In this document: piece after piece, positions 41,576 through 59,275 of the stretch
How positions within the stretch are numbered: position 1 is the first letter of the stretch
How the letters are laid out: every line of letters starts with the position of its first letter
DNA from: Actinoplanes lobatus
Lineage (GTDB): Bacteria; Actinomycetota; Actinomycetes; Mycobacteriales; Micromonosporaceae
Assembly (NCBI RefSeq): GCF_014205215.1
Contig: NZ_JACHNC010000001.1
Coordinates: 3,167,001 to 3,231,000, forward strand
Reading direction: 5' to 3'
DNA: 64,000 bases
The notes under the pieces: model-generated
Database searches by the model: none
What the model was told of the DNA's origin: nothing
The model's input: the letters and a program-made list of their open reading frames with translations, nothing else
Program-made: the position numbers and the translations under genes

Positions 41576-41578
41576 GGT
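41573..41578 (+). promoter_or_regulatory. -10 box (TAGGGT) of rph, leaderless
   Basis: TAGGGT, seven bases, then ATG 41586. The T of this box is part of the stop codon of the upstream glycosyltransferase gene. Confidence 0.5.
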
Positions 41579-41585
41579 TGGGGGC

Positions 41586-42314
41586 ATGGCGCGACCCGAC
41601 GGCCGAGCGGCCGACCAGCTGCGGCCGGTGACCCTGTCCCGGCGATGGAGCATCCACCCCGAAGGTTCGGTGCTGGTGGAGTTCGGCAACACCCGGGTGC
41701 TGTGCACCGCGAGCGTCACCGAGGGGGTGCCGCGCTGGCGCAAGGGCTCCGGCCTCGGCTGGGTGACCGCGGAGTACGCGATGTTGCCCCGGGCCACGAA
41801 CACCCGCGGCGACCGGGAGAGCGTCAAGGGCAAGGTGGGCGGGCGCACCCAGGAGATCTCCCGCCTGATCGGCCGCAGCCTGCGCGCCTGCATCGACCTG
41901 AAGGCACTGGGGGAGAACTCGATCGTTCTCGACTGCGACGTGCTCCAGGCCGACGGCGGCACCCGGACAGCGGCGATCACCGGGGCCTATGTGGCGTTGC
42001 ACGACGCCGTCACCTGGCTGGCCGAGCGCAAGTCGCTGGCCGGGAAGATCGAGAAGGTGCTGCACACCTCCATCCAGGCGGTCAGCGTCGGCATCATCGA
42101 CGGCGAGGCCCGGCTCGATCTGATGTACGACGAGGACGTGACCGCCGAGGTCGACATGAACGTGGTCTGCACCGGCGGGGGCGACTTCGTCGAGGTGCAG
42201 GGGACGGGGGAGAACGGCGTGTTCCGCAGGGCCCAGCTGGACGCGATGCTCGACCTCGGTGTGCTCGGGTGTGCCGAGCTGGCCGCCGCGCAGGCTAAGG
42301 CGCTGGCCTCATGA
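41586..42314 (+). CDS. rph: Ribonuclease PH
   Basis: A protein of 242 residues. It has the phosphorolytic core: [56 protein letters not shown] and [17 protein letters not shown]. The enzyme trims tRNA 3' ends with phosphate. Its TGA overlaps the ATG of a 77-bp element, which separates it from rdgB. Confidence 0.97.
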
Positions 42315-42387
42315 GCGAGCTTGCGAGCGAATCATTCGGCTCAGTCTTGAACTCATGCCGGCACCGGAGCGAAGCGGAGGTGACGGC
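42311..42387 (+). repeat. 77-bp coupled mini-ORF element, copy 1 (rph-rdgB junction)
   Basis: Begins with ATGAGCGAGCTTGCGAGC, whose ATGA is also the rph stop, and ends just before the rdgB ATG. It encodes a 26-codon frame (starting MSELASES, containing RSEAEV) whose TGA (42389-42391) overlaps the rdgB start. A hairpin (GCCGGCACC / GGTGACGGC around GGAGCGAAGCGGA) lies in its second half. GGAGG sits seven bases before the rdgB ATG. Confidence 0.85.
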
Positions 42388-43002
42388 ATGAGCGCCCGGC
42401 TGCTGCTTGCGACCGCCAACAAGAAGAAGCTCGTCGAGTTGCAGCGCATCCTCGACGCGGCGCTCGGCGTGGCGCAGATCGAGCTGGTCGGTCTCGGCGA
42501 CTTCCCGAACTACCCGGACGTGCCGGAGACCGGCCTGACGTTCGGGGAGAACGCGCTGATCAAGGCCCGGGAGGGCGCTAAGCGTACCGGCCTGGCGACC
42601 GTCGCCGACGACTCCGGCCTGGCGGTGAACGCGCTCAACGGCATGCCCGGCGTGTTCAGTGCCCGCTGGTCCGGCGGGCACGGCGACGACCAGGCCAACT
42701 TGGACCTGGTGCTGGCCCAGGTCAGCGACCTGCCGGACGAGCACCGGGGCGCCGCGTTCGTGTGCGCGGCCGCCCTGGTCCTGCCGAACGGGCGTGAGCA
42801 CCTGGTCGAGGGCCGCCAGACCGGCCGGCTGCTGCGGTCCGGCCGCGGCGACGGCGGGTTCGGCTACGACCCGATCTTCGTGGGCGACGGCCAGGACCGG
42901 ACCAACGCCGAGCTCAGCCCGGGCGAGAAGGACGCCATCAGCCACCGCGGGAAGGCCTTCCGCGAGCTGGCCAAGGTGATCGCCAAGGAACTGCCCCGCT
43001 AG
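42388..43002 (+). CDS. rdgB: Non-canonical purine NTP pyrophosphatase (RdgB/HAM1)
   Basis: A protein of 204 residues. Motifs: LLATANKKKLVELQRIL, YPDVPETGLTFGENALIKA, ADDSGLAVNAL, MPGVFSARWSG and GFGYDPIF. It removes ITP and XTP from the nucleotide pool. The ATG at 42388 is the first base triplet after the 77-bp element, whose GGAGG is its ribosome-binding site. It ends abutting the stop of the convergent peptidase gene. Confidence 0.97.
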   Translation: MSARLLLATANKKKLVELQRILDAALGVAQIELVGLGDFPNYPDVPETGLTFGENALIKAREGAKRTGLATVADDSGLAVNALNGMPGVFSARWSGGHGDDQANLDLVLAQVSDLPDEHRGAAFVCAAALVLPNGREHLVEGRQTGRLLRSGRGDGGFGYDPIFVGDGQDRTNAELSPGEKDAISHRGKAFRELAKVIAKELPR

Positions 43003-44247
43003 CTATTCGCGGACCATGGTCAGGAGCCGGTCCAGGACGCGTTCCTCCCGGCCCAGACCGTCGTGGGCGTACTCGTTGGTGACCCACGGTCGCAGGTTCC
43101 CGATCGCGGCCGCGGTGGCCAGCGACATGTCCCGGTCCACGTACATGTCGTCGTGGTAGATCGCGGCCGCCACCGGAACCTCGTTGGCGGCCAGCCGCGC
43201 CGGGTCGTAGAGGGCCGGCCAGTCGGCCTTTCCGGCGATCCGGTCCGCGGCATCGGCGAGCGGCGCCAGGGCCGGATCCTCGGTGAAGTGCCAGGGATAG
43301 ATCATCTCCCCGGTGAACCGCACCGGCCCGCCCCGGTCCAGGTCGAACGCGCCGAACTCGGCCCGCACGCGCTGGGCCGCCCACCCGGTCGCCGCGCCCT
43401 GCCCGTAGATCGCCTCGTGCAGCACGGCGTAGAGCGGATCCTCGGCGAAGGAGACCACGGCGTCGACCCGGCGCAGGAACACCTCGGACAGCTCGGGCCC
43501 GGCGAACGCCTCCTCCAGCAGGTGGTGCAGTTGGTCGAAACGGGCCGCCGAACCCAGGCCGATGCCGAGCGCCTGGAACCGGTGCGGGGTGAGCCGGTCC
43601 CCGCCCGGCAGCCGCGCGTCCTGCTCCCGCAGCGCGTCCACCACCCGGCGGGCGATCGCCTCGTCCTCCGGATAGCGGGCGAAGTAGCGCTCGTTCTGCG
43701 CCAGCACCCGCGGGTAGGCGGCCCGGTACACGTCGTCCGCGGTCGCGGTCAGCCCCGGCAGCCCACCCGTGATGACCACCTCGCGCAGCCCTTCCGGCGC
43801 GAAACTCAGGTAGGTGACCGCACAGAACCCGCCGAAGCTCTGCCCCAGCACACTCCACGGCCGGTCGCCGGTCAGATGCCGCCGGAGCAGTTCCGCGTCG
43901 GCGACGATGGCGTCCGCCCGGAACCGGGCGAGATGGGCGGCCGGGTCGCCGATCCCCGCCAGCGTCTGCCGGGTGAGCGGCGTGCTGCGCCCGGTGCCGC
44001 GCTGGTCGAGCAGCACCACCCGGTAGTCACGGGCCGCCCGGCGCAGCCACACCGGCAGTTCCCGGGGCGCCCGGTGTCCCGGACCACCCTGGAGGAAGAG
44101 CAGGAACGGCCGGCCTTCGGCCGCCGGATCGGCCTCCCGCACCTCCCGCGCGAAGATCTCGATGCGCGGTCCGTCCGGATCCCCGTGAACCAGGGGTACG
44201 GCCAGCGTGTGCTCGGCGAAGACGAGCCCGGAATGACGATGGATCAC
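43003..44247 (-). CDS. Alpha/beta hydrolase, proline iminopeptidase-like (S33)
   Basis: A protein of 414 residues. Oxyanion motif LQGGPGHRAP, LLDQRGTGRSTPL, the nucleophile elbow VLGQSFGGFCAVTYL and a late Asp/His pair (YHDDMYVD, NEYAHDGLG). This is the S33 prolyl aminopeptidase pattern and length. It probably releases N-terminal proline from peptides; no signal peptide. Stop codons of this gene and rdgB are directly adjacent. Confidence 0.85.
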   Translation of the reverse strand: MIHRHSGLVFAEHTLAVPLVHGDPDGPRIEIFAREVREADPAAEGRPFLLFLQGGPGHRAPRELPVWLRRAARDYRVVLLDQRGTGRSTPLTRQTLAGIGDPAAHLARFRADAIVADAELLRRHLTGDRPWSVLGQSFGGFCAVTYLSFAPEGLREVVITGGLPGLTATADDVYRAAYPRVLAQNERYFARYPEDEAIARRVVDALREQDARLPGGDRLTPHRFQALGIGLGSAARFDQLHHLLEEAFAGPELSEVFLRRVDAVVSFAEDPLYAVLHEAIYGQGAATGWAAQRVRAEFGAFDLDRGGPVRFTGEMIYPWHFTEDPALAPLADAADRIAGKADWPALYDPARLAANEVPVAAAIYHDDMYVDRDMSLATAAAIGNLRPWVTNEYAHDGLGREERVLDRLLTMVRE

Positions 44248-44315
44248 TCCCCGATCCTGCCGTATCCACCGCCCTCATCAGCGACAGGCGGTCCCGGTGA
44301 GTGCCCTCCGGGAGG

Positions 44316-45851
44316 TCAGCTGAGCGGGCCGACCGTCGTCTCGATGGCGGTGCGCAGGGCCGGGCCGGCGACCACGGCGCGGGTCTGTTCCAGGACCGGG
44401 GCCAGGAACACGTCCGGGCCGGGAGCGCCGGCGAACGGCTCGACGGCGGCCAGCGCGGCCCGCCCGGCCGGGGAGGCGGTGAGCGGGGCGCGCAGTTGCA
44501 GGCCGCGGACGGCGGAGAGCAGTTCCACGGCGAGCAGGCTGGTCAGGTTGTCCAGGACGGTCCGCAGCTTCTTGGCGGCCGCCCAGCCCATCGACACGTG
44601 GTCCTCCTGCATGCCGCTGGTCGGCAGGGAGTCCACCGAGGCCGGCGACGCGAGGCGGCGGTTCTCGGCGACGATCCCGGCCGCCGTGTACTGGGCGATC
44701 ATCAGGCCCGAGTTGACGCCCGCGTCCGGCGACAGGAACGGCGGCAGGTCGCGGGAGCGGGTCACGTCGAGCAGCCGGTCCACCCGGCGTTCGGCGATCG
44801 CGCCCACCTCGGCGGCCGCGATGGCCAGGAAGTCGGCGGCGAACCCGAGCGGCGCCCCGTGGAAGTTGCCGGTCGACTCGACCCGCCCGTCCGGCAGCAC
44901 CACCGGGTTGTCCACCACCGACACGAGCTCGCGTGAGCTGACCAAAAGCGCGAAGTCGAGGGTGTCCCGGGCCGCCCCGGCCACCTGCGGGGCGCACCGT
45001 ATCGAGTAGGCGTCCTGTACGGCGTGCGCCAGGTCGTCGCGGTGCGAGTCCATGATCGCCGAGCCCTGGAGCAGCCGGTGGATGTTCGCGGCCGACGCGG
45101 CCTGCCCCGGGTGCGGCCGGATCTCGTGCAGTTCCGGCAGGAACGGCCGTTCCGAGCCGAGCATCGCCTCGATGGCGAGCGCCGCCGTCACGTCGGCCAT
45201 GGTGAACAGGTGCCGGGCGTCGGTGATCGCCAGCAGCAGCATGCCGAGCATGCCGTCGGTGCCGTTGATCAGCGCGAGGCCCTCCTTCGCGGCCAGGTCG
45301 AGCGGTTGCAGCCCGGCGGCGCGCAGTGCCTCCGCCCCGGCGATCCGGGAGCCGTCCTTGCCGACCACCCAGCCCTCGCCGAGCAGCACCAGCGCGCAGT
45401 GCGCGAGCGGCGCCAGGTCACCGGAGGCGCCGAGCGAGCCGTGTTCCGGCACCCACGGCGTGATGTCGTGGTTGAGCAGGTCCACGAGGCCCTGGGCGAG
45501 CACCGGCCGCACCCCGGAACGACCCAGGGCCAGCGACCGGACCCGCAGCAGCATCATGGCCCGCACCACTTCGCGGGGCATCGGCGCGCCGATCCCGGCG
45601 GCGTGCGAACGGATCAGCGCGTGCTGGAGCTCGGCCCGCCGGGACGGGTCGATCGACGTGCTGGCGAGCGCGCCGAATCCGGTGGACACGCCGTAGACGG
45701 GCCGCCCGGACGCCTCGATGCCGTCGACGATGGCCCGGCTCGCGGCCATCGCCTCGACGGCGGCGGGTGCGATCTCGACGCGGGCGTCGGTGCGGGCCAC
45801 GGCGACGACGTCGGCGGCGGACACACCGGTGGAAAGAACAGTGACGATCAT
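44316..45851 (-). CDS. hutH: Histidine ammonia-lyase
   Basis: A protein of 511 residues from ATG 45851. The MIO prosthetic-group triad is Ala142-Ser143-Gly144 in GSLGASGDLAPL. Other motifs are YGVSTGFG, INGTDGM and TSGMQEDHVSMGWAAA. It converts histidine to urocanate, the first step of the pathway, yet is the last gene of this operon. Its ribosome-binding site is supplied by the adjacent 77-bp element. Confidence 0.96.
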   Translation of the reverse strand: MIVTVLSTGVSAADVVAVARTDARVEIAPAAVEAMAASRAIVDGIEASGRPVYGVSTGFGALASTSIDPSRRAELQHALIRSHAAGIGAPMPREVVRAMMLLRVRSLALGRSGVRPVLAQGLVDLLNHDITPWVPEHGSLGASGDLAPLAHCALVLLGEGWVVGKDGSRIAGAEALRAAGLQPLDLAAKEGLALINGTDGMLGMLLLAITDARHLFTMADVTAALAIEAMLGSERPFLPELHEIRPHPGQAASAANIHRLLQGSAIMDSHRDDLAHAVQDAYSIRCAPQVAGAARDTLDFALLVSSRELVSVVDNPVVLPDGRVESTGNFHGAPLGFAADFLAIAAAEVGAIAERRVDRLLDVTRSRDLPPFLSPDAGVNSGLMIAQYTAAGIVAENRRLASPASVDSLPTSGMQEDHVSMGWAAAKKLRTVLDNLTSLLAVELLSAVRGLQLRAPLTASPAGRAALAAVEPFAGAPGPDVFLAPVLEQTRAVVAGPALRTAIETTVGPLS

Positions 45852-46005
45852 GCCGCCACCTCCGCTTCGCTCCGGCGTCGACATGATTTCAAAACTGAGT
45901 TCAATGATTCACTCGCAAGCTCGCTCATGCCGCCACCTCCGCTTCGCTCCGGCGTCGACATGATTTCAAAACTGAGTTCAATGATTCACTCGCAAGCTCG
46001 CTCAT
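45852..46005 (-). repeat. 77-bp element, copies 2 and 3 in tandem (hutI-hutH junction)
   Basis: Two copies (45929-46005 and 45852-45928) are identical to each other. Each encodes a 26-codon frame starting MSELASES. The ATGA overlaps run in series: hutI stop with the first ATG, first stop with the second ATG, second stop with the hutH ATG. The pair inserts exactly 154 bases without breaking stop/start coupling. GGAGG lies before each ATG. Confidence 0.88.
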
Positions 46006-47150
46006 TGCGGCACTCCGTGGTGCAGAACGGTTCGGATCAGGGGGACACCCGGCCGGTAGGCCAGGTGCAGGTGCGAGGGCGCGTCCAGGACGATCAGGTC
46101 GGCGCGGGCGCCGATCGAGACCCGGCCCAGGTCGGTGCGGCGCAGGGCGGTCGCGCCACCCAGGGTCGCCGCCGCGACCGCTTCGCTCGGTGTCAACCGC
46201 ATCTCCCGTACGGCGAGAGCGATGCAGAACGGCATCGACGACGTGTACGACGACCCCGGATTGCAGTCGGTGGCCAGCGCGACGGTGACGCCCGCGTCCA
46301 GCAGCCGCCGCCCGTCCGGGTAGGGCGACCGGGTGGAGAACTCGGCGCCCGGCAGCAGCGTGGCCACCGTGTCCGAGGAGGCGAGCGCGTCCACGTCGGC
46401 GTCGTCGAGGTGGGTGCAGTGGTCGGCGCTGGCCGCCCCCAGCTCCACGGCCAGGCGCACACCCGGCCCGGGGCCCAGCTGGTTGGCGTGCAGCCGCAGG
46501 CCCAGCCCGTGTTTCGCGCCGGCCAGCAGGACGGCGCGGGCCTGATCGGCGTCGAAGGCGCCGCGCTCACAGAACACGTCGACCCATTTCGCGTACGGCG
46601 CGACGGCCTCCACCATCTCCCCGCACACCAGGTCCACATAGTCGCCGGGGCGGTCCGCGTACTCGGCCGGAACCACGTGCGCCCCGAGGAACGTGGTCTC
46701 CTCGACGATCTCGGCGGCCACCCGCACGGACCGCTGCTCGTCGGCGACGCTCAGGCCGTACCCCGATTTGATCTCGATCGTGGTGGTGCCCTGCCGCAGC
46801 GCCTCGCCCACCAGGCGCCGCGCATTGCGGCGCAGCTCGTCGTCGGACGCGGCGCGGGTGGCGGCGACGGTGGTCCGGATGCCGCCGCCGGTGTACGCCT
46901 CCCCGGCCATCCGCGCCCCGAACTCGGCCGCCCGGTCACCCGCGAAGACCAGGTGCGCGTGGCTGTCCACGAAGCCGGGCAGCACGGCGGCGCCGTCCGC
47001 GTCCAGCGCCGAGTCGGCGGCCGGCGCGGACGAGACCGGCCCGATCCAGGCGATCCGGTCGTCCTCCACCACGACGGCGACGTCGTGCACGATCCCCAGC
47101 CCGGGATCGTTGGTGAACAGCTCACCGATGTTGGTGACCAGGAGACTCAT
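46002..47150 (-). CDS. hutI: Imidazolonepropionase
   Basis: A protein of 382 residues from ATG 47150. An amidohydrolase-fold enzyme with the metal motif [38 protein letters not shown] and [11 protein letters not shown]. It hydrolyses imidazolonepropionate to formiminoglutamate. The start overlaps the hutF stop as ATGA, the intact form of the junction that elsewhere in this operon is interrupted by 77-bp elements. Confidence 0.95.
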
Positions 47151-48430
47151 GTCGCCACCAGCACCTTCGCCAGCTCGCGGGGCACGTCGACCAGGGTGTG
47201 CCGGCCCTCGGAGACGATCCGCCGCCCACCGGAGATCACGTGGGTGACGTCGGCCGCGGTGGCCGCGAAGATCACCTGATCGGGCCGGGCGCCGACGGTC
47301 CGGACGCCGTCCAGGTTCACCGCCACCAGGTCGGCGCGCTGCCCGGGTGTGATCGTCCCGGCGTCGTCCCAGCCCAGGGCCGCGTGCCGGGCCGCCGCCG
47401 CGACCAGTTCGGCGGCCGGGAAGTGGCCGCGGCTCTCGCTGGCCAGCCGCTCGTTCATCTCCAGCCCGCGGATCTCCTCGAACGGGTCGATCACCGCGTT
47501 GCTGTCGCTGCCCAGGCTCAACGGCACACCCGCGTCGGCGAGCCGCCGGGCCGGGCCGATGCCGTCGGCCAGGTCGCGTTCGGTGGTGGGGCACAGGCAC
47601 ACCCCGGCGCCGCTGCCGCCGAGCAGCTTGACGTCGCCGTCGGTCAGGTGGGTGGCGTGCACCGCCGTGGTCCCCGGCCCGAGGATGCCGTGCCGGTCCA
47701 GCAGCTCGGTCGGCGTGCAGCCGTGCACGGCCCGGCACTGCTCGTTCTCGGCCCGCTGCTCGGAGAGGTGCACGTGCAAGGGTGTCCGCCCGGCCAGCAC
47801 GGCCAGCTGGTCGGCGGGCACCGCGCGTACCGAATGGAGGGCCGCACCGATCCGGGCGTGCGGCGCGGCGGTCAGCGCGCCCACCCGCTCGGCCCAGCGT
47901 TCCGCGTCGCCGTCACCGAACCGCTCCTGCACGCCCTCCAACGGCGCCCCGTCGACCCGCGACGTCAGGTAGAGCGTGTCCAGCAGGGTGATCCGGATCC
48001 CGGCCTCGCCGGCGGCCTGCAACAGCGCCGCGCCCATCGCGTTCGGATCGTCGTAGCGGACCCCGCCGGGCGCGTGGTGCAGGTAGTGGAACTCGCCCAC
48101 GCAGGTGATCCCGGCCAGCGCCATCTCGGCGTAGACGGCCCGCGCCAGCGCCAGATAGCCGTCCGGGTCGAGGGCGCCGGCGACCGCGTACATCTGCTCC
48201 CGCCACGTCCAGAAGCTGCCCGTGCCGGTGTGGGTACGCCCGCGCAGCACCCGGTGGAAGGCGTGCGAGTGGGCGTTGGCGAGACCGGGCAGCACCAGGC
48301 CGGGCAGGCGCTCGCCCGTCGCCGGGGCGCCCGGGGTGACCGCGGTGAACCGGCCGTCCACCACCTCGATCCGGACGTCCTCCGCCACCCGGTCACCCAG
48401 CCAGGCGTACCTGGCGTGGTAGACGCTCAC
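47147..48430 (-). CDS. hutF: Formimidoylglutamate deiminase
   Basis: A protein of 427 residues from GTG 48430. Amidohydrolase superfamily: [44 protein letters not shown] and [11 protein letters not shown]. It converts formiminoglutamate to N-formylglutamate and ammonia, so this organism uses the two-step route. Its GTG overlaps the stop of the upstream M20 gene by four bases. Confidence 0.93.
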
Positions 48431-49581
48431 GTCAGCGCCTCCAGCACCCGGGCCAGCGCCTCGACGCCCGCCTCGCAGTCGGCGTCGGAGGCGTGCTCGG
48501 CGGGGGAGTGCGACACCCCGGTCGGGTTGCGGACGAACAGCATGGCGGTCGGCACGTGCGCGGACAGCACCCCGGCGTCGTGGCCGGCGCCGGTCGGCAG
48601 GATCGGCGCGCCGCCCAGCAGGTCACTCAACCGCACGGCCAGAGCGTTGTCGAAGGCCACCTCGCCGGTCACCGACTCGGCGGTCACCTCCACCCCGGTG
48701 CCGTCCCGGCTGGCCCGCTCGGTCGCCTCCCGCACCACCGACCCGACCAGCTGATCGAGGGTGCCGGTGTCCGCGGCCCGGGCGTCCAGCCAGCCCCGCA
48801 CCAGCGACGGGATGGCGTTCGTGGCGTTCGGCTCGACCTGCACCCGGCCCATCGTGGCGTGCGCGCCGGCCAGCCGGGCCTCCCGGTCGGCGACCAGCAC
48901 GGTGAACGCGAACGTCTGCATCGGATCACGCCGGTCGGCCATCAACGTGGTGCCGGCATGGTCACCGACGCCGGTGAAGTCCATCCGCCAGCGGCCGTGC
49001 GGCCAGATCGCGCTGGCCACCCCGACCGGGACGGTCAGCGCCCGCCCCTGCTCGATGTGCAGCTCCACGACCGCCGACAGGGTCCGCACGCGCGGATCGG
49101 CGCCGGCCGGCTGCCGCCCGAGCGCCTCCGCGAAGGTGACCCCGTCGCGATCCCGCAGCGCGGCGGCCTTCTCCGGCGCGATCGCGCCGGTCAGCAGACG
49201 AGACCCCAGACACGGTACGCCGAAGCGCCCACCCTCCTCCTCGGCGAACGCCGCGACCACCACCTTCCGGTCCCGCGGGAGCTCGTCGACGGCGAGGAAG
49301 GCGCTCACGATCCCGAGCGGCCCGTCGTAGCCGCCACCGTGCGGCACCGAGTCGAAATGCGATCCGGTCAGCACGGTCCCCGGCGCCCACGGCTCGGCCC
49401 GCCACGCGAAGAGGTTGCCGTTGCCGTCCTCGGTGACCGTCATGTCCCGCTGGGCGGCCTGCCCGCGGAACCAGTCGCGCAGGGTCAGCTCGGGTGCGGT
49501 CAGCGCGTACCTCAGATAGCCGCCGCCGGCCGCCCGCCCGACCGGCGCGATCTCCGCCCAGAGTTTCCCGAACTCGCTCAT
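48427..49581 (-). CDS. M20-family amidohydrolase (allantoate amidohydrolase-like) in the hut operon
   Basis: A protein of 384 residues. Metal ligands fit the M20 amidase group: GSHFDSVPHGGGYDGPLG, EEEGGRFG, ELHIEQG and the dimer-domain motif GVGDHAGTTLM; the last ligand is in SHSPAEHASD. Annotation by similarity would be allantoate or N-carbamoyl amino-acid hydrolase. The window has no hutG, and this gene sits between hutU and hutF with coupled starts. It may therefore hydrolyse N-formylglutamate to glutamate and formate (inference). Confidence 0.85.
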   Translation of the reverse strand: MSEFGKLWAEIAPVGRAAGGGYLRYALTAPELTLRDWFRGQAAQRDMTVTEDGNGNLFAWRAEPWAPGTVLTGSHFDSVPHGGGYDGPLGIVSAFLAVDELPRDRKVVVAAFAEEEGGRFGVPCLGSRLLTGAIAPEKAAALRDRDGVTFAEALGRQPAGADPRVRTLSAVVELHIEQGRALTVPVGVASAIWPHGRWRMDFTGVGDHAGTTLMADRRDPMQTFAFTVLVADREARLAGAHATMGRVQVEPNATNAIPSLVRGWLDARAADTGTLDQLVGSVVREATERASRDGTGVEVTAESVTGEVAFDNALAVRLSDLLGGAPILPTGAGHDAGVLSAHVPTAMLFVRNPTGVSHSPAEHASDADCEAGVEALARVLEALT

Positions 49582-49658
49582 CGCGACGCCTCCGCTGCGC
49601 TCCGGCGTCGCGATGAGTTCAAGACTGAGCCTGATGATTCGCTCGCAAGCTCGCTCAT
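49582..49658 (-). repeat. 77-bp element, copy 4 (hutU-M20 junction)
   Basis: Runs from ATG 49658, which overlaps the hutU stop as ATGA, to the base before ATG 49581. Its 26-codon frame starts MSELASES, has RSAAEASR at its end, and its TGA overlaps the M20 start. The hairpin arms CGCGACGCC and GGCGTCGCG are perfectly complementary here although both differ from copy 1. This looks like compensatory change. Confidence 0.87.
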
Positions 49659-51286
49659 GGCCGCATCGGGATCTTCACGTCGCCGGCGCATCCCGACTCG
49701 TATCCGGCGTCGACGTGCCGCAGCACCCCCATCGCCGGGTCGTTGGTCAGCACCCGCTCGATCTTCTGCCCGGCCAGCGCCGTCCCGTCGGCCACGCACA
49801 CCTGCCCGGCGTGGATGCTGCGCCCGATGCCCACCCCGCCACCGTGGTGGATCGACACCCAGCTCGCCCCGGACGCCGTGTTGACCAGCGCGTTCAGCAG
49901 CGGCCAGTCGGCGATCGCATCGGAGCCGTCGAGCATCGCCTCGGTCTCCCGGTACGGCGACGCCACCGACCCGGAGTCCAGGTGGTCCCGCCCGATCACG
50001 ATCGGCGCGCTGACGTCCCCGCGCGCCACCATGTCGTTGAACCGCACGCCGGCCTTGTCGCGTTCGCCGTACCCGAGCCAGCAGATCCGCGCCGGCAGCC
50101 CCTGGAAGGCGACCCGTTCCCCGGCCATCCGGATCCACCGCGCGAGCGGCTCGTTCTCCGGGAACAGGTCCAGCACTGCGCGGTCGGTGGCGGCGATGTC
50201 GGCCGGGTCCCCGGAGAGCGCGGCCCACCGGAACGGCCCCTTGCCCTCGGCGAACAGCGGCCGGATGTACGCCGGAACGAACCCGGGGAAGTCGAAGGCC
50301 CGCTCGTACCCGGCCAGTTTCGCCTCACCGCGGATCGAGTTGCCGTAGTCGAACACCTCGGCCCCCGCGTCCTGGAACCCGACCATCGCCTCGACGTGCA
50401 CGGCCATGCTGGCCCGGGAACGGTCGGTGAACTCGTCGGGTTTCGTCCGCGCGTACTCGGCCATGTCGTCCAGCTCGACGCCGAGCGGGAGATAGCTGAG
50501 CGGGTCATGGGCGCTGGTCTGGTCGGTGACGATGTCGATCGCGACACCGTTCCGCAGCAGCGTCGGGAAGACCTCGGCCGCGTTGCCGACCACGCCGACC
50601 GACAGCGCCTTCCGGTCGGCCTTCGCCTGGAGCGCGATCGACACCGCCTCGTCCAGGCTTCCGGCGATGACGTCCAGGTAGCGGGTGTCGACCCGGCGCT
50701 GGAGACGGGTGCGGTCCACGTCGACGATCAGGCAGACGCCGCCGTTCATCGTCACGGCCAGCGGCTGCGCGCCGCCCATGCCACCGCAGCCGCCGGTCAG
50801 CGTCAACGTCCCGGCGAGGTCGGCGCCGAACCGCTTGGCGGCCACCGCGGCGAACGTCTCGTACGTGCCCTGGAGGATGCCCTGCGTCCCGATGTAGATC
50901 CACGAACCGGCGGTCATCTGCCCGTACATGGTCAGGCCCAGCTGCTCCAGGCGCCGGAACTCCGGCCAGGTCGCCCAGTCGCCGACCAGGTTCGAGTTCG
51001 CGATCAGCACCCGCGGCGCCCACTCGTGGGTGCGCAGCACACCGACCGGCTTACCGGACTGCACCAGCAGCGTCTCGTCGCCGCGCAGCGTGTCCAGCTC
51101 CCGCACGATCGCGTGGAACGACGGCCAGTCCCGCGCGGCCCGGCCGGTGCCTCCGTAGACCACGAGATCCTGTGGCCTCTCGGCCACATCCGGGTCCAGG
51201 TTGTTCATCAACATGCGCTTGGCGGCCTCCTGCGGCCAACCCATGGCGGTGTACGCCGTACCGCGCGGCGCCCGGATCTCGGACAT
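49655..51286 (-). CDS. hutU: Urocanate hydratase
   Basis: A protein of 543 residues. It is recognised by [66 protein letters not shown] and the NAD-contacting [15 protein letters not shown] region. The enzyme hydrates urocanate to imidazolonepropionate with bound NAD+. First structural gene after the regulator (gap 14 bases). Confidence 0.96.
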
Positions 51287-51300
51287 CGAAGTCTCCTCCC

Positions 51301-52143: not shown

Positions 52144-52152
52144 GAGAGCAGC

Positions 52153-52162
52153 TTATGCATAA
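52153..52162. promoter_or_regulatory. Palindrome TTATGCATAA upstream of the hut regulator gene
   Basis: A perfect 10-base palindrome 10 bases before the RpiR-type gene start, overlapping a possible -10 (TATGCA on the minus strand). It is a candidate autoregulatory operator for the hut unit. Confidence 0.4.
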
Positions 52163-52219
52163 AATCTTTCAGGACGCCAGGGTCCTCACCCGATGCAACA
52201 CCCCGGAGCCGCAAAACGA

Positions 52220-52253
52220 GACGGGCCGGACCCCCGAGGGGAACCGGCCCGTC
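52220..52253. terminator. Hairpin between the hut regulator and MOSC genes
   Basis: GACGGGCCGG (52220-52229) and CCGGCCCGTC (52244-52253) are perfectly complementary around a 14-base loop. It is not preceded by a same-strand gene end within 300 bases on either side, so it may insulate the two divergent promoters. A second, weaker repeat (ATCGATCAG / CTGATCGAT) follows at 52298-52329. Confidence 0.55.
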
Positions 52254-52383
52254 CAGGCTGACCTGCGTCAGGCGACACCCAGCCCGACAGGGCTGAAATC
52301 GATCAGTCGAAGGCGCGAGCCTGATCGATCAAGGGAAGTTGGGAAACCCTGTTCCCATGGGCCGTTGTGGCAGGCTGGGCGGC

Positions 52384-53205: not shown

Positions 53206-53248
53206 AAGAATTGCCCCCACCCCTCCGGGGCGACCAGGATGCCTGGTC

Positions 53249-54187: not shown

Positions 54188-54200
54188 CGTCCCCCACGGA

Positions 54201-54231
54201 GAACGGCCCGGTCCACTGGACCGGGCCGTTC
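54201..54231. terminator. Terminator hairpin between the expansin-like gene and tRNA-Leu
   Basis: GAACGGCCCGGTCC and GGACCGGGCCGTTC (14-base arms, loop ACT) are perfectly complementary. Usable by the plus-strand gene ending at 54187 and by the minus-strand tRNA ending at 54241. Confidence 0.85.
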
Positions 54232-54240
54232 CCGTTGCGG

Positions 54241-54324
54241 TGCGGAAGAGGGGAATCGAACCCCTACGCCCTCTCGGGCACGGGCACCTAAAACCCGCGC
54301 GTCTGCCGATTTCGCCACTTCCGC
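54241..54324 (-). tRNA. tRNA-Leu (anticodon UAG)
   Basis: The minus strand folds as a class II tRNA. Acceptor arm: GCGGAAG / CTTCCGC. D-arm: GCGAAATCGGCAGACGC. Anticodon stem CGGGT/GCCCG with loop TTTAGGT, so the anticodon is TAG. A long variable arm (GTGCCCGAGAGGGCGTA) and the T-arm GGGGTTCGATTCCCC complete it. CCA is not encoded. It reads the CUA leucine codon, which is rare in DNA of this composition. Confidence 0.95.
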
Positions 54325-54402
54325 CCTATTTGCCCCTCAAGCCAGAGCGTTGTGAAGAGTGTAAACGGTCCGCTCGGCCTGTGGCGTCTCGCTTGCCACC
54401 GA

Positions 54403-55140
54403 TCATTCCGTGATCGTGGCCCGATCGAGGTCGGGGGTTCGGGGCCGCCACGGCAACGGCGTCAGCGTCCCATGTGTTTCCCAACGACGCATCAGCGCAT
54501 ACACCTGACGACGCTCGCAGCCCAATTGCCGGGCGGCGTCGGCGACGGCCAGCTCCTTGCGCTGCACTTTCTGGAGCACTTCGGCCCTTTCCTCCTCGGT
54601 GGTCGCGCATTGTGCAGGCTGCTCCACCGGGCTTCCCCGGTCGTCCACCCGGACCATCGGCACTCGATGGCGAGGTCGGTTCCGGCCCGCGTAGGTGGCC
54701 GTCTGGCTGTGGCAGTTCGGGCAGAGGAAACGGAGGTTCTCCGCCTGGCAGTTCCAGAACCGCCCGTCGATATGATCGACCTGGAGGGTGAGGGGCCGTC
54801 CGTTCCAGGAACCATCGATGCCGCACTCGGTGCAGCGATAGGCGCGGCCCAGGTCCTCGAGTGCCCGGCGGAGCACCGTGGGTGCTTGCCGCTTGGCGTC
54901 GGGCGGGCGTTCGATCAGGATCTCGCCGGGTCCGCGCCGGCGCGGATTGCGCGTCCCTGGCATGTGGGCACGACCGAGGAAGTGTGACGTGTCGATCCCC
55001 AGCTGCGTGATCCGGCGGCGCAGGTAGGCGTGCGATCCACCGTTCAGTCGCAGGTTCAGGTGGCGAAGTACTCCGGACATCGAGGTCGAGGCGGCGACCG
55101 CCGCGGTCAGCATTTCGCGGGTGTACTTGACGTATGACAT
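54403..55140 (-). CDS. HNH endonuclease with helix-turn-helix ends
   Basis: A protein of 245 residues from ATG 55140. The HNH core is CTECGIDGSWNG ... LQVDHIDGRFWNCQAENLRFLCPNCHSQT, with four zinc cysteines and the DH-N-H catalytic triad. The N-terminal 50 residues (TREMLTAAVAASTSMSGVLRHLNL) and the C-terminal part (VADAARQLGCERRQVYALMRRW) each look like a helix-turn-helix. Such stand-alone HNH proteins occur on phages and as homing-type nucleases. No integrase or intron is seen around it. The palindrome CACCCCTCGGGGGTG abuts its -10 box. Confidence 0.85.
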   Translation of the reverse strand: MSYVKYTREMLTAAVAASTSMSGVLRHLNLRLNGGSHAYLRRRITQLGIDTSHFLGRAHMPGTRNPRRRGPGEILIERPPDAKRQAPTVLRRALEDLGRAYRCTECGIDGSWNGRPLTLQVDHIDGRFWNCQAENLRFLCPNCHSQTATYAGRNRPRHRVPMVRVDDRGSPVEQPAQCATTEEERAEVLQKVQRKELAVADAARQLGCERRQVYALMRRWETHGTLTPLPWRPRTPDLDRATITE

Positions 55141-55147
55141 GTTGTCG

Positions 55148-55168
55148 ACTGTACACCCCTCGGGGGTG
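55148..55168 (-). promoter_or_regulatory. Leaderless promoter and operator of the HNH nuclease gene
   Basis: On the minus strand TACAGT (55153-55148) is followed by seven bases and ATG 55140. Immediately upstream, CACCCC-TCG-GGGGTG (55154-55168) is a perfect inverted repeat and a good place for a repressor. Confidence 0.5.
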
Positions 55169-55324
55169 GCTGGAAAGCGCGCACGGCGGCCGCCTTGCGG
55201 GTTGGTACCGCATGACGACCGCCGTGAGATCCCGGACCGCCGCGCCGTGCCGGCGATTGAACCCCTCATCGGCTTGGGTGGCCCGGACCTGTAGGTTTTC
55301 GCCCGGCTTTTCCGGTGGCCGGGA

Positions 55325-55801
55325 TCAGTCGAGGCCGAGGTCGCGGCGGAGCTTGGCGACGTGCCCGGTGGCCTTGACGTTGTAGAGGGCGCGCTCGATG
55401 ACACCGTTCTCGTCGATGACGAAGGTGGAGCGGATGACGCCGGTGACCGTCTTGCCGTAGAGCTGCTTCTCACCGTACGCCCCGTAGGCCGTGAGGGTGC
55501 TCTTGTCCTCGTCGGCGACCAGCGGGAACGTGATGGCGTCGTGCTCGCGGAACTTGGCGAGCTTGGCCGGCTTGTCGGGGGAGATGCCGACGACCTCGTA
55601 CCCGGCGGCCTGGAGGGAGGCCAGCGAGTCGCGGAAGTCGCACGCCTGCTTGGTGCAGCCGGGCGTCATCGCGGCCGGGTAGGCGTACAGCACGACCTTG
55701 CGCCCGCGCAGGTCCTTGAGGGAGAGGCTGTCGCCGGTGTCGGTGGGGAGGGTGAAGTCGGGCGCGGCGTCGCCGGCGCTGAGACGCACGTTTTCAGTCA
55801 T
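55325..55801 (-). CDS. bcp: Thioredoxin-dependent peroxiredoxin (Bcp/PrxQ)
   Basis: A protein of 158 residues from ATG 55801. It has the PrxQ layout: FTLPTDTGDSLSLKDLRGRKVVLYAYPAAMTPGCTKQACDFRD-type region with the peroxidatic Cys in TPGCTKQAC and the resolving Cys five residues later, then VVGISPDKPAKLAKF. It reduces peroxides with thioredoxin. Confidence 0.95.
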   Translation of the reverse strand: MTENVRLSAGDAAPDFTLPTDTGDSLSLKDLRGRKVVLYAYPAAMTPGCTKQACDFRDSLASLQAAGYEVVGISPDKPAKLAKFREHDAITFPLVADEDKSTLTAYGAYGEKQLYGKTVTGVIRSTFVIDENGVIERALYNVKATGHVAKLRRDLGLD

Positions 55802-55808
55802 GGACCCG

Positions 55809-55814
55809 ACGATA
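55809..55814 (-). promoter_or_regulatory. -10 box (TATCGT) of the peroxiredoxin gene, leaderless
   Basis: On the minus strand TATCGT, seven bases, then ATG 55801. It lies in the 20-base gap after speD, so bcp can be transcribed alone. Confidence 0.5.
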
Positions 55815-55821
55815 GTGCGGA

Positions 55822-56244
55822 TCAGCCGGGCACCCGCTGAGTGCTCCACAGACGGCGGGCGGCGGTGAGGTCGCGGGGCCATTCCTCACCGCGGCGGGTG
55901 AGGGAGTGTTCGGTGATCCGGAAGTCGCCGAGGAGACGGTGGAATTCGTCGAGCACGTCGTTTTCGTGAAACGGCTTGCAGGAGAAGACGTTGATGAGGA
56001 TCTCGCGCAGATGCGGGTAGGTGTGGATGGCGGCGTGCGATTCGGCGAGGATCACCACCGCGGATTTTCCGGCCTTTTCGGGCGGGCCGGTCTCGGTGGC
56101 GACCAGGGGGCCGGCGATGACCGTCATGCCGATGCGATCGACCAGGTCGCGCATGAACCGGGTGAGGGCCGCGTCGTCGTCGAGGGCGCTCGTGTCGGCG
56201 ATGCCGGAGAGCCGGAGGGTGAGTTCGTCGCCGTAGTGGGACAT
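55822..56244 (-). CDS. speD: S-adenosylmethionine decarboxylase proenzyme-like (SpeD)
   Basis: A protein of 140 residues. The self-cleavage motif is present as AESHAAIHTYPHLREI, with the Ser that becomes the pyruvoyl group. The usual FTCG is replaced by NVFSCKPF. Bacterial SpeD supplies decarboxylated SAM for spermidine, or in some homologues decarboxylates arginine or ornithine; no spermidine synthase gene is adjacent. The C-terminal 25 residues are basic. Confidence 0.85.
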   Translation of the reverse strand: MSHYGDELTLRLSGIADTSALDDDAALTRFMRDLVDRIGMTVIAGPLVATETGPPEKAGKSAVVILAESHAAIHTYPHLREILINVFSCKPFHENDVLDEFHRLLGDFRITEHSLTRRGEEWPRDLTAARRLWSTQRVPG

Positions 56245-56250
56245 AACTGT

Positions 56251-56280
56251 AAGTTAGCAATGTGAAACGGCGCGTGACAA
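56251..56280 (-). promoter_or_regulatory. Promoter of speD (TTGTCA-18-TAACTT), leaderless
   Basis: On the minus strand the -35 TTGTCA (56280-56275) and -10 TAACTT (56256-56251) are 18 bases apart. ATG 56244 follows six bases after the -10. It is the clearest vegetative-type promoter in the window. Confidence 0.65.
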
Positions 56281-56479
56281 TCGATGGGCATGCCAACCCG
56301 AACAGCCTCGGGAATCCGTTTCCGCAGTCATTCCGGTCACCGTTTTCCGGTGCTTCGCGCATATCGGGAGAACGGAAACAACAGCGGTCGGCAGCGTGTT
56401 CTGCGCATCGAGTATCAGCCTTGTGTCACCCGGGAGGGTACGCTCCCGGCATCGACGTCGAGAGTGGAGATCAGCGCAG

Positions 56480-56851
56480 ATGAGCGAGGTTACGGACGGC
56501 ACCACGCAGGCGGGCACCACCACCGTCTCCAGCGAGGTCGTCGAGAAGATCACGGTCGCGGCCGTCAAGTCCGTGCCGGGTGTCGCGGACCTGGGTGGTG
56601 ACGTGGCCCGGTTCTTCAACAACGTGCTGGACCGGGTGGGCCTGGACCAGGTCGGTGACGCGAGCCGCGGTGTCTCGGCGAAGGTCAGCGGCAGCGACGT
56701 GACGGTGACCGTGGTGCTGGTCCTGGAGGCCGGCCGGGTGGTGGCCGAGGTGACCACGGCCGTCCAGGAGGCGGTGACCGCGGCGCTGCGGGGTTACGGC
56801 CTCAACGTCCTGGCCGTCAACGTGAACGTGGACGACATCGCCGGGGTCTGA
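56480..56851 (+). CDS. Asp23/Gls24-family protein
   Basis: A protein of 123 residues from ATG 56480. The Asp23 pattern is clear: VSSEVVEKITVAAVKSVPGV, GVSAKVSGSDVTVTVVLVLEAGRVVAEVTTAVQEAV and the ending VLAVNVNVDDI. The family is linked to envelope stress and often comes as several copies in actinobacteria; here a single copy is present. It converges with the redox operon. Confidence 0.9.
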   Translation: MSEVTDGTTQAGTTTVSSEVVEKITVAAVKSVPGVADLGGDVARFFNNVLDRVGLDQVGDASRGVSAKVSGSDVTVTVVLVLEAGRVVAEVTTAVQEAVTAALRGYGLNVLAVNVNVDDIAGV

Positions 56852-57820
56852 TCAGACGGTCGTGGGCGCGGGGACCGCGGCGCGGAGCCGGAGCACACCG
56901 GTGAGCGCCAGCCCGGCGCCCGCCCCGATGGCGATCGCCACGGCGGCGCGGGCGAGCCAGGCCGGTCCGGCGGCGGGGACGACCGCGGCGAAGAAGACGT
57001 CGGCGCTGCCGAAACCGGCGAAGGCGGCCAGGATGAAACCGGACAGCGCCAGGTAGAACGGCGGGTGACGGTAGGCGGCCGCGCAGGCCAGCAGGCCCGC
57101 GACGATCGGTACGCCGGACCAGCCCTCGCCGTCCAGGGCGCGTGCTGTCGCGTACCCCAGGGTGGGAAGCCCCGCGACGAGGGTGAGGACGCGCACCGAG
57201 CCGGACCACCGCCGGGCGATGAGGGTGACGGCGAGGCCGATGAGGGCCGCGCCGGCCCACCAGGCCCAGGCGGCCGGGGGTGGCTCGTAGTCGAGGGTGC
57301 CCTGGATGTCGAAGGTCCGCACCTGGTCGCGCAGCGGGACCACCCACTCGCGGAGCCGGTGCGGCTGATCGGGCATCACCCCGGCGGGCAGGGCCGGCTC
57401 GGTCCACTGGGTGCGCTGGTCGTGCCAGCGGACCGTGGTGTCGCTGGAGATCTTGCGCCAGGTGGGCGCCGCGGTGGGGTCGGCGGCGGGTGGGAGCGCG
57501 GTGCCGCCGTCGCGGGTCTCGTTGAGGTACGTGGCCGGCGAGCCGGTGTTCTGATAGGTGCCGTCCGGCCGGACCTCCAGGTAGGGCTCGCCGGAGTAGC
57601 CGAGGATCTCGATGGCCCGGCCGGTGTCGTTGCCGAGTTCGAGACGGGCGCCGCCTTCGACGACCCGGACCCGGAGCCCGTCCATCGGATTGCTGAGCCC
57701 GGTGACGGTGACCCGGTAGGAGCTGACCTCGGTGGTGTCGCCGGCGTGGGCGGACGCCGGAGTGGCCGGCGCGAGGACCGCGACGGCCACGGCCAGGACG
57801 AGACCGGCGAACCGTCTCAT
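56852..57820 (-). CDS. Exported membrane protein of the MauE/DsbA operon, unknown function
   Basis: A protein of 322 residues from ATG 57820. A signal peptide ends at SASAHAG. The extracellular domain (about residues 27-195) contains LSNPMDGLRVRVVEGGARLELGND and two Trp-rich segments. Four to five hydrophobic helices follow. No cysteines are seen in the mature domain. The start overlaps the DsbA-like gene stop as ATGA. The N-terminal His after cleavage resembles copper-protein neighbours in this region, but no copper motif is clear. Confidence 0.7.
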   Translation of the reverse strand: MRRFAGLVLAVAVAVLAPATPASAHAGDTTEVSSYRVTVTGLSNPMDGLRVRVVEGGARLELGNDTGRAIEILGYSGEPYLEVRPDGTYQNTGSPATYLNETRDGGTALPPAADPTAAPTWRKISSDTTVRWHDQRTQWTEPALPAGVMPDQPHRLREWVVPLRDQVRTFDIQGTLDYEPPPAAWAWWAGAALIGLAVTLIARRWSGSVRVLTLVAGLPTLGYATARALDGEGWSGVPIVAGLLACAAAYRHPPFYLALSGFILAAFAGFGSADVFFAAVVPAAGPAWLARAAVAIAIGAGAGLALTGVLRLRAAVPAPTTV

Positions 57821-58557
57821 CCGGCGGCCTTCTCGACGGTCTGGGTGATCAGTTCGGCGCTGGGCACGGTGTTGTTCTCCCCGGTGAGGGTCTTGCCGTC
57901 GACGACGATCGTCGGGGTGCCGGTGTGGCCGCGCCCGAGGAACGTCTCGGTGGCCTGGGCGGCCCACGCCTTGTACGTTCCCTCGTTCACCGCGTTCTTG
58001 AAAGCGTCGCTGGTGAGGCCGACCGTGGCGGCCAGCTCGATCATCCTGGCGTCGCTGAGGCCGTCGCTGTTCTCCGCCGGCTGGTTGGCGTAGAGCACGT
58101 CGTGGAACTCGGTGAACTTTCCCTCCTCCGCGGCGGCGGCGGACGCGGCGGCGGAGCGGGTCGAGTACTCGGTGCCGTTGGAGAAGCGGTCCAGGATGGC
58201 GACCGGGTGGAACCGGAGGGTGATCTTGCCGTCGGTGGCGAGCTGCTTCAGTGTGGGCCCGGTGGTCGCCTCGAAGTTGCCGCAGGACGGGCACATGAAG
58301 TCCTCGTAGACGTCGACGGTCACCGGCCCGGCGCCGGTGGCGAAGGCGGTGCCCTCGTCGACGGCCGAGGCGGGCGTGGTGACCTTGCCCTCGTCCTGAC
58401 CGGACAGCACGGTGTAGCCGATCAGGCCGGCCACGAAGAGGACCAGGACCACGGCGACCGAGGTCCACAGCGTCACGGTGCGGCGCCGCTCGGCGGCCTT
58501 CTGCTCGGCGACGATCTGCCGCGCCTTGACCGCCCGGTCCCTGCTGCCCTTGCTCAT
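57817..58557 (-). CDS. Membrane-anchored DsbA-like thiol oxidoreductase
   Basis: A protein of 246 residues from ATG 58557. A basic cytoplasmic N-terminus and one transmembrane helix (VTLWTSVAVVLVLFVAGLIGY) anchor it. The thioredoxin-fold domain has the active site DFMCPSCGNFE (CPSC), the helical insertion and the cis-Pro loop GTPTIVVDG. It probably introduces or rearranges disulfides outside the membrane. Its start follows the second of two tandem 77-bp elements; the ribosome-binding site GGAGG comes from the element. Confidence 0.92.
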   Translation of the reverse strand: MSKGSRDRAVKARQIVAEQKAAERRRTVTLWTSVAVVLVLFVAGLIGYTVLSGQDEGKVTTPASAVDEGTAFATGAGPVTVDVYEDFMCPSCGNFEATTGPTLKQLATDGKITLRFHPVAILDRFSNGTEYSTRSAAASAAAAEEGKFTEFHDVLYANQPAENSDGLSDARMIELAATVGLTSDAFKNAVNEGTYKAWAAQATETFLGRGHTGTPTIVVDGKTLTGENNTVPSAELITQTVEKAAG

Positions 58558-58711
58558 CGCGCCACCTCCACTTCGCTCCGGTGTCGCGATGAGTTGATGA
58601 CTGAGCTGAATGATTCGCTCGCAAGCTCGCTCATCGCGACACCTCCGCTTCGCTCCGGTGTCGCGATGAGTTGATGACTGAGCTGAATGATTCGCTCGCA
58701 AGCTCGCTCAT
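58558..58711 (-). repeat. 77-bp element, copies 5 and 6 in tandem (MauE-DsbA junction)
   Basis: Units 58635-58711 and 58558-58634 differ at only a few positions near the hairpin. Each encodes a 26-codon frame starting MSELASES. Their ATGA overlaps chain the MauE-like stop, the two mini-ORFs and the DsbA-like start. The hairpin arms CGCGACACC / GGTGTCGCG are perfect in the first unit. Confidence 0.88.
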
Positions 58712-59199: not shown

Positions 59200-59275
59200 G
59201 GTCACATCCGGTTAGTCGGACTTCGCGGCGCTTCGGTTCCCCGAGATCACCCATCCGCAGCATGTTCACAGGAAG

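What the first reader, a model, noticed from the sequence alone, without database searches (positions are those of the whole stretch)
42311..58711. A family of 77-bp elements that splice a coupled 26-codon mini-ORF into operon junctions
Six copies at four junctions (rph-rdgB, hutI-hutH twice, hutU-M20, MauE-DsbA twice) are all exactly 77 bp. Each starts with ATGAGCGAGC, whose ATGA contains the stop of the upstream gene. Each ends so that the mini-ORF's own TGA overlaps the ATG of the next gene or unit. 26 codons plus stop is 81 nt; minus a 4-nt overlap is 77, so insertion or duplication preserves translational coupling. Each unit also carries GGAGG seven bases before the next ATG and a GGAGCGAAGCGGA-loop hairpin. 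In copies 1, 4 and 5 the hairpin arms differ in sequence but remain largely or fully complementary. Intact ATGA junctions (hutF-hutI, DsbA-next gene) show the likely ancestral state. This looks like an element adapted to live at stop/start overlaps, perhaps as a translation modulator, a selfish DNA or a source of a conserved micropeptide.
Basis: seen in the sequence. Interest (0 to 1): 0.85.

Follow-up and report, generated by a model that had tools for sequence, protein, structure and literature searches.

The report
Mobile start-stop relay repeats in actinomycetes
A short repeated piece of bacterial DNA slips in exactly where one gene's stop signal overlaps the next gene's start signal and carries a tiny reading frame that probably passes the ribosome on; a similar trick was known from mycobacteria, and here related pieces turn up in many other actinomycetes, with recent insertions caught next to their still-empty counterparts.

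Summary
The window has six 77-bp units at four operon junctions. Its genome (genus Actinoplanes by shared GTDB genus) has 73 units at 58 sites; the reversed control pattern finds 0. At 53 of 58 sites the upstream stop overlaps the unit's start; at 56 of 58 the unit's stop overlaps an ATG.

Of 40 junctions compared with the closest relative, 30 are empty there, at NTGA in 29 aligned cases; at 24 of these 30 an outgroup also lacks the unit. So most tested insertions are recent.

Model matches occur in 132 of 298 genomes sampled from the order. One DNA core is read in three different frames in different lineages, yet the small ORF still ends on the next start codon. So DNA/RNA structure and coupling are kept, not the peptide. 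Both overlaps lie at the feet of covarying hairpins, and the start codon's first base covaries with unit base 22.

It works like mycobacterial MIRUs, a known kind; sequence kinship to one MIRU unit was not significant. The mobiliser is unknown; a Y1 transposase is not generally required.

The parts
42311..42387 (+). 77-bp unit 1, rph-rdgB junction; mini-ORF 42311-42391 including its stop
45929..46005 (-). 77-bp unit 2a (first of the pair), hutI-hutH junction; mini-ORF 45925-46005
45852..45928 (-). 77-bp unit 2b (second of the pair, identical to 2a), hutI-hutH junction; mini-ORF 45848-45928
49582..49658 (-). 77-bp unit 3, hutU-M20 junction; mini-ORF 49578-49658
58635..58711 (-). 77-bp unit 4a (first of the pair), MauE-DsbA junction; mini-ORF 58631-58711
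58558..58634 (-). 77-bp unit 4b (second of the pair), MauE-DsbA junction; mini-ORF 58554-58634
42311..42332 (+). 5' hairpin module of unit 1 (columns 1-22; NTGA at its foot, base 1 covaries with base 22)
42353..42391 (+). 3' hairpin of unit 1 (columns 43-81; TCAT pairs with the downstream ATGA)
42376..42380 (+). GGAGG, Shine-Dalgarno-like, columns 66-70, 7 nt before the rdgB ATG
41556..42314 (+). upstream gene, RNase PH (longest ORF; exact start not determined)
42388..43002 (+). downstream gene, RdgB/Ham1 family
46002..47738 (-). upstream gene, HutI-like amidohydrolase (longest ORF; true start probably further in)
44316..45851 (-). downstream gene, HutH-like aromatic amino acid lyase
49655..51286 (-). 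upstream gene, urocanase (HutU)
48427..49581 (-). downstream gene, M20 peptidase family
58708..59205 (-). upstream gene, MauE family
57817..58557 (-). downstream gene, DsbA-like thioredoxin

Best explanation
A small, non-autonomous mobile element of the MIRU kind that lives at NTGA stop/start overlaps inside operons. Shown by sequence: it inserts in sense at an existing NTGA (preferring ATGAGC), adds a whole unit, and leaves NTGA on both sides. Its frame starts on the upstream gene's stop and ends on the downstream gene's start. Each NTGA lies at the foot of a covarying hairpin, and the 3' hairpin also contains the Shine-Dalgarno-like GGAGG and the downstream start codon. Inferred: the ribosome that ends the upstream gene restarts at the first NTGA, reads the 26 codons, thereby opens the 3' hairpin and restarts at the second NTGA, so the downstream gene stays coupled and the insertion is tolerated. 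The peptide itself is not the selected product. Arrays grow by duplication of whole units in place. Not known: the enzyme or process that moves it.
For: Position and coupling: 53 of 58 sites with an upstream ORF ending on the unit's NTGA (one of these, L112, has a doubtful GC3 of 0.57) and 56 of 58 with the stop on an ATG. Insertion: 30 of 40 tested junctions are empty in the closest relative G019, 4 more hold a unit there too, 6 gave no clear answer (read with the places); 24 of the 30 are crossed without a 77-bp unit in an outgroup, though 3 of these carry 18-42 extra bases. Target: the empty sites begin with ATG in 23 of 30 and have AGC as second codon in 22 of 30, against 26 of 60 and 11 of 60 ordinary NTGA junctions of the same genome, p 0.003 and 5e-7. 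Open frame kept without peptide: pN/pS 0.79, 57 peptides from 63 units, GC3 0.69; frames ASES, RQRANH and CERII on the same core; 275 of 285 short frames in held loci end on ATGA, GTGA or TTGA. Structure: column pair 47-77 has the highest mutual information of all pairs; covariation score 0.180 against 0.089 shuffled for the 3' hairpin and 0.168 against 0.090 for the 5' one, 0 of 500 shuffles each; base 1 and base 22 pair A-T 35, G-C 30 of 67 order-wide copies. Arrays: neighbours 98.0% alike, nearest unit at another site 93.5% at the median.
Against: No expression or Ribo-seq data, so translation and coupling are inferred. Folding energies are not clearly better than shuffles in most of the ten units tested, and the minimum-energy folds do not show the 5' hairpin. 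In both structure counts some measures do not exceed the controls: pairs with a change on both sides 95 and 470 of 500 shuffles, further pair types 487 and 43 of 500. Two own copies break the pattern (a 76-bp unit, L073, and a unit fused to its gene, L097), and a 78-bp unit (L090) runs into its neighbour. pN/pS 0.79 leaves room for weak constraint on the peptide in this genome.
Confidence: 0.77

Rival explanations
1. The units exist to make a conserved micropeptide (MSELASES...), spread because the peptide is useful.
For: Open frames are kept and the first eight residues are constant in the own genome and in the exact-pattern set; pN/pS is slightly below 1.
Against: The constant part is constant at synonymous sites too, with codons that are rare in this GC-rich genome (GC3 0.69 against 0.84-0.98 in most flanking genes). 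57 different peptides from 63 units. In the Micromonospora-type and the mycobacterial type the same core is read in other frames.
Confidence: 0.05
2. A regulatory cassette kept by the host: the hairpin and relay ORF set the ratio of downstream to upstream protein, and the copies are retained because this tuning is useful.
For: SD and start codon inside a covarying hairpin; arrays of 2-3 units, and up to 7 in one genome, could give graded effects; coupled mini-ORFs of other sequence occur at the same junctions in relatives.
Against: The four window junctions and the flanking genes differ in function; most tested insertions are private to one lineage, with the closest relative empty, which fits tolerated insertions better than conserved control. 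It may still be true of single copies.
Confidence: 0.2
3. A MITE- or REP-like passenger of IS200/IS605-type (Y1, HUH) transposases: NTGA is the cleavage tetranucleotide and the hairpin feet are its guides.
For: Fixed tetranucleotide target, hairpin next to each end, no extra duplication, base-pair relation between NTGA and unit-internal bases. The own genome has six PF01797 matches.
Against: PF01797 is absent from 8 of 15 element-rich genomes tested, among them G094 with 140 copies in one contig, and present in 8 of 31 genomes in which the pattern finds no copy.
Confidence: 0.12
4. No transposition: copies spread only by homologous recombination and slippage between short ATGAGC matches.
For: Arrays of whole units with near-identical neighbours; target preference ATGAGC equals the unit's own first bases.
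Against: 58 dispersed sites with precise gain of 77 bp (or a multiple) at sites sharing only about 6 bp with the unit; slippage alone does not move DNA between sites.
Confidence: 0.1

Closest known systems
MIRUs, mycobacterial interspersed repetitive units (described in passages of PMC12548453 and PMC4213456; original papers recalled, not read)
   Same: Short repeated units, 77 bp at senX3-regX3, in tandem; an ORF inside the unit coupled to the next gene at -4 nt spacing; thought mobile, inserting at start codons. The MIRU292 unit printed in PMC7977185 (53 bp) also reads as an ORF ending on ATGA.
   Different: Different host groups (PMC4213456 places the senX3-regX3 MIRUs in M. leprae and the M. 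tuberculosis complex only). MIRU292 lacks the constant 5' module. Similarity of MIRU292 to the units is not significant. The covarying hairpins, the base 1 / base 22 rule and three reading frames were found here; I have not checked whether anyone looked for them in MIRUs.
REP/BIME sequences and IS200/IS605-type elements (recalled)
   Same: Hairpins next to a fixed tetranucleotide, dispersed non-autonomous copies.
   Different: Units are open reading frames inside operons, and a Y1 transposase (PF01797) is missing from 8 of 15 element-rich genomes.
Short relay ORFs that deliver ribosomes to a downstream gene (natural cases and biotechnological designs mentioned in PMC12548453)
   Same: Mini-ORF whose stop overlaps the next start, with SD and structure in between.
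   Different: Here the relay ORF is a repeated, dispersed element with empty sites in relatives.

Membership tests
MIRU | Short interspersed unit in tandem copies of constant length | tested here: met
   73 units, 58 sites, 13 arrays, spacing 77 in 14 of 15 intervals; 7 units 77 bp apart in L400
MIRU | ORF in the unit coupled to the next gene at -4 nt spacing | tested here: met
   56 of 58 own sites; 275 of 285 short frames in held loci
MIRU | Mobile, inserted at start codons | tested here: met
   30 of 40 junctions empty in the closest relative; outgroup lacks the unit at 24 of 30
MIRU | Sequence similarity to MIRU units | tested here: inconclusive
   One MIRU unit (MIRU292, from PMC7977185) against six groups of units plus a Micromonospora-type subset: shuffles reaching the observed best score 8 to 250 of 300, mean score 6 to 258 of 300; an earlier run with a faulty unit filter gave 309 of 400
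MIRU | Host is Mycobacterium | tested here: not met
   Host genus shares GTDB genus with Actinoplanes italicus and A. lutulentus (contig lengths); related units do occur in 51 of 248 genomes of an inferred Mycobacterium genus
IS200/IS605-type passenger | Y1 transposase in the genome | tested here: not met
   PF01797 absent from 8 of 15 element-rich genomes
IS200/IS605-type passenger | Fixed short target and hairpins at the ends | tested here: met
Rfam RNA family | Match above a gathering score | tested here: not met
   Only a tRNA at 54241-54324 in window 42000-59000

The most novel reading that the evidence does not exclude
The unit chooses or fixes its landing site by base pairing: its internal base 22 (with bases 19-21) pairs with the NTGA it sits on, so A-, G- and T-starting overlaps carry units with T, C and A at base 22. 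Insertion would then be guided by the hairpin foot, as RNA or single-stranded DNA, by an enzyme not yet recognised, and it leaves a footprint of altered bases just left of the NTGA. This would be a transposition system aimed at translation start sites.
Probability: 0.22. Interest if true: 0.87.

Novelty: new variant of a known kind. Interest (0 to 1): 0.66.

Why it matters
How MIRU-like units move is, as far as I know, open (recalled). Here is a large, order-wide relative with at least 24 insertions polarised by empty sites in two other genomes, clear target preference and covarying ends, in soil bacteria that can be handled in ordinary laboratories. It makes the mode of insertion directly testable, offers a natural set of relay ORFs for studying termination-reinitiation, and warns gene callers that a constant open frame need not mean a conserved peptide. 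The units are also ready-made strain markers.

Tried and rejected
Conserved micropeptide: rejected as the main reason, see frames and pN/pS. Y1 transposase: proposed from the pairing of ATGA with internal TCAT, tested and not supported as a general mobiliser. The RNAalifold register of the 5' end (bases 1-4 with 22-25) was dropped for bases 1-4 with 19-22 because only that one fits the base 1 / base 22 covariation and the TCAT/TCAC variants; in this register two tandem G-A mismatches remain, so only 57% of cells are standard pairs. Insertion-caused mutation of the flanks: the left -3..-1 bases changed 15 times on the insertion lineage and 3 times on the other (67 positions; baseline 15 and 39 in 1658), but at -6..-4 the changes lie on the other lineage (3 and 9) and right of the junction they are even (34 and 33), so only the last three bases are tied to insertion. 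Whether the unit brings these bases or they adapt later is open; G is rarer and A commoner at -1 than in ordinary junctions (10 of 57 against 23 of 60, 18 of 57 against 7 of 60). Start codon at empty sites: 7 of 30 differ from the own ATG, against 3 of 24 at ordinary junctions, so the data do not show that the unit brings its own ATG. Plasmid and phage collections: no match. Papers: searches for the 77-bp repeat with Actinoplanes, DTGA, the peptide, the DNA letters and MIRU-like repeats in actinobacteria found no description of this element outside mycobacteria; only that open-access library was searched. The phylum sample gave 3 of 396 genomes at E up to 1e-4, one of them the own genome; with only 11 candidates scored per genome, weak copies would be missed.
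Full report
What was checked. The six units of the finding are in the window at the stated places, each exactly 77 bp, each starting on the upstream stop and ending on the next start. Direct-repeat analysis shows the same 77-bp register.

How many and where in the genome. A 24-base pattern of the unit with up to 3 mismatches finds 73 places, 35 forward and 38 reverse, and none for the reversed pattern. Fetched with flanks, they form 58 sites, 13 of them arrays. At 53 of 58 sites an upstream ORF of at least 165 codons ends exactly on the unit's NTGA; for one of them (L112) the GC3 of that frame is only 0.57, so that gene is doubtful. Of the other five, two have a one-base overlap (TAATG, TGATG: L076, L106) and three have the upstream stop a few bases earlier (L069, L078, L105). 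Downstream, 56 of 58 units end on ATG; the exceptions are a 76-bp unit (L073) and a unit fused in frame to its gene (L097). Four shortened units (47, 56, 47 and 44 bp) keep the overlap; a 78-bp unit (L090) reads on into its neighbour, whose stop again lies on the next ATG.

Empty sites. In 30 genomes listed for rdgB the own genome alone has this unit at rph-rdgB; 24 have a direct overlap and 5 have another coupled mini-ORF (L117, L118, L125, L127, L140; the last is a very diverged 77-bp one). For hutU-M20, G052 also has the unit, the closest relative G019 is empty, and L147 and L152 show other coupled mini-ORFs. I then joined the flanks of 40 of the 53 sites outside the window that had an intact frame and searched G019. 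Thirty gave a continuous match with no unit; four (L062, L072, L095, L100) gave matches split around a place where searches list a unit in G019; six gave no clear answer. The empty sites start with ATG 23, GTG 6, TTG 1; AGC is the second codon in 22 of 30. In 60 ordinary NTGA junctions of the same genome these are ATG 26, GTG 33, TTG 1, and AGC 11. So the preference for ATGAGC already exists before insertion (p 0.003 and 5e-7). For 24 of the 30 an outgroup sequence (G041 or G055) runs across the junction without a 77-bp unit, with 30, 42 and 18 extra bases at three of them. These are therefore gains in the own lineage rather than losses in G019.

A footprint. Next to the insertion the own genome differs from G019 more than at 24 control junctions: at -3..-1 29 of 89 against 4 of 69, at -6..-4 16 of 89 against 0 of 69, at +9..+30 96 of 660 against 20 of 528. 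Polarised with the outgroups, only the -3..-1 changes lie mainly on the own branch (15 against 3); at -6..-4 they lie on the G019 branch (3 against 9) and on the right they are even (34 against 33). So the right-hand excess marks junctions with variable gene ends, whereas the last three bases on the left are tied to the insertion.

Spread. In the family, 91 of 354 genomes match a 22-base pattern (up to 3 mismatches), most with few hits; the richest are G094 with 140, G047 with 137 and the own genome with 75; the reversed control gives an occasional single hit, so single-hit genomes may be chance. A sequence-only model of 44 units matches 132 of 298 genomes sampled from the order at E up to 1e-3, with 15 candidates scored per genome, 51 of 248 of the genus of G571, which I infer to be Mycobacterium from a shared fused gene with M. 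septicum, and 3 of 396 genomes sampled from the phylum at E up to 1e-4 (own, one of the same order, one of another class). Outside the order the family is rare or absent at this sensitivity.

One core, three frames. In Actinoplanes and the exact-pattern set the core GCGAGCGAATCA is read A-S-E-S. In the 80- and some 77-bp units of genus g23 (Micromonospora by size and numbers, inferred) one or two bases are added before it and it is read R-A-N-H or E-R-I-I. In the 65-bp units of the inferred mycobacteria it is read C-E-R-I-I. The frame still runs to an NTGA. Over all held loci 275 of 285 frames of up to 95 bases end on ATGA, GTGA or TTGA; 5 end on CTGA, 4 on TAG, 1 on TAA; 36 run longer (fusions or arrays) and 6 run off the locus. 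In the own genome pN/pS is 0.79 and 57 peptides come from 63 distinct units. A conserved peptide is therefore unlikely.

Structure. In 63 distinct own units the column pair 47-77 has the highest mutual information of all pairs (GC 39, TA 10, CG 9, TG 3, GG 1, GT 1). On 29 of these units the 3' hairpin (43-55 with 69-81, 59-60 with 64-65) has 92.2% paired cells and a covariation score of 0.180; shuffles give 0.089 and slid versions at most 0.054. It holds the GGAGG and the downstream ATGA, which pairs with TCAT at 43-46. At the 5' end base 1 and base 22 pair A-T 35, G-C 30, A-C 1 in 67 order-wide copies, the 67th (G-T) being a mis-parse; bases 19-22 are GAAT or TCAT with A, GAAC or TCAC with G. 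The one TTGA unit of the own genome (L079) has A at base 22; three GTGA second units have T. G570, G368, G587 and G567 each hold both types, so the covariation is not one old split. On 18 distinct 22-mers the score is 0.168 against 0.090 shuffled and at most 0.105 slid. Other measures in the two counts do not exceed their controls (95, 487 and 470 of 500 shuffles reach them; 43 of 500 for pair types in the 3' hairpin). Energies alone are weak: z between -3.0 and +1.2 in ten units.

Mechanism. The most likely working is a relay: the upstream ribosome stops and restarts on the first NTGA, reads through the unit, opens the 3' hairpin and restarts on the second NTGA. The sequence shows the parts; the ribosome steps are inferred. 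Array growth by whole-unit duplication is supported by neighbours being 98.0% alike against a 93.5% median for the nearest unit elsewhere. What moves units between sites is not known: PF01797 is found in 15 of 46 genomes, 7 of 15 element-rich and 8 of 31 without pattern hits.

Compared with the known. The review PMC12548453 (passages seen) describes MIRUs as mobile repeats that insert at start codons with an internal ORF coupled at -4 nt, likely to limit harm to the gene. PMC4213456 (passages) reports tandem 77-bp MIRUs at senX3-regX3. By working and anatomy this is the same kind. By sequence, the one MIRU unit at hand (PMC7977185 Table 1, passages) is not significantly similar to any group of units, so I do not file the element as a MIRU. 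The original MIRU papers were not read.

Verdict. A real, order-wide, recently active family; the interpretation as a coupling-preserving mobile element is well supported, the micropeptide idea is not. The kind is known, the family and its features (three frames, covarying hairpin feet, target preference, footprint) appear new within the library searched.

Noticed in passing
L097 (own genome, unit near G000:C1:7499152): A shortened unit is fused in frame to the downstream gene, giving it an MSELASES N-terminus; the same kind of fusion occurs in L435, L448, L449, L453, L454 and in M. septicum L231.
   Followed up: partly
L400:574-1115 (genome G570): Seven tandem units, each 77 bp apart, the longest array seen.
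   Followed up: no
L117, L118, L125, L127 (rph-rdgB) and L147, L152 (hutU-M20): Coupled mini-ORFs of unrelated sequence (6 to 29 codons) at the same junctions in relatives, each starting on the upstream stop and ending on the downstream start; other element families or decayed units.
   Followed up: partly
L262 (Actinophytocola algeriensis), from position 1664: The 5' module alone is repeated in frame several times inside one ORF (GELASESM repeats).
   Followed up: no
L456 and L240: Eight-codon remnants ATGAGCGAGCTTGCGAGCGAATCATGA that still form a stop/start relay.
   Followed up: no
L101 (own) and L045 (G027): Two species carry a unit at what looks like the same junction although the closest relative G019 is empty there, which suggests reuse of favoured junctions.
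   Followed up: no
window 54241-54324 (-): A tRNA gene between the hut genes and the MauE-DsbA junction.
   Followed up: no
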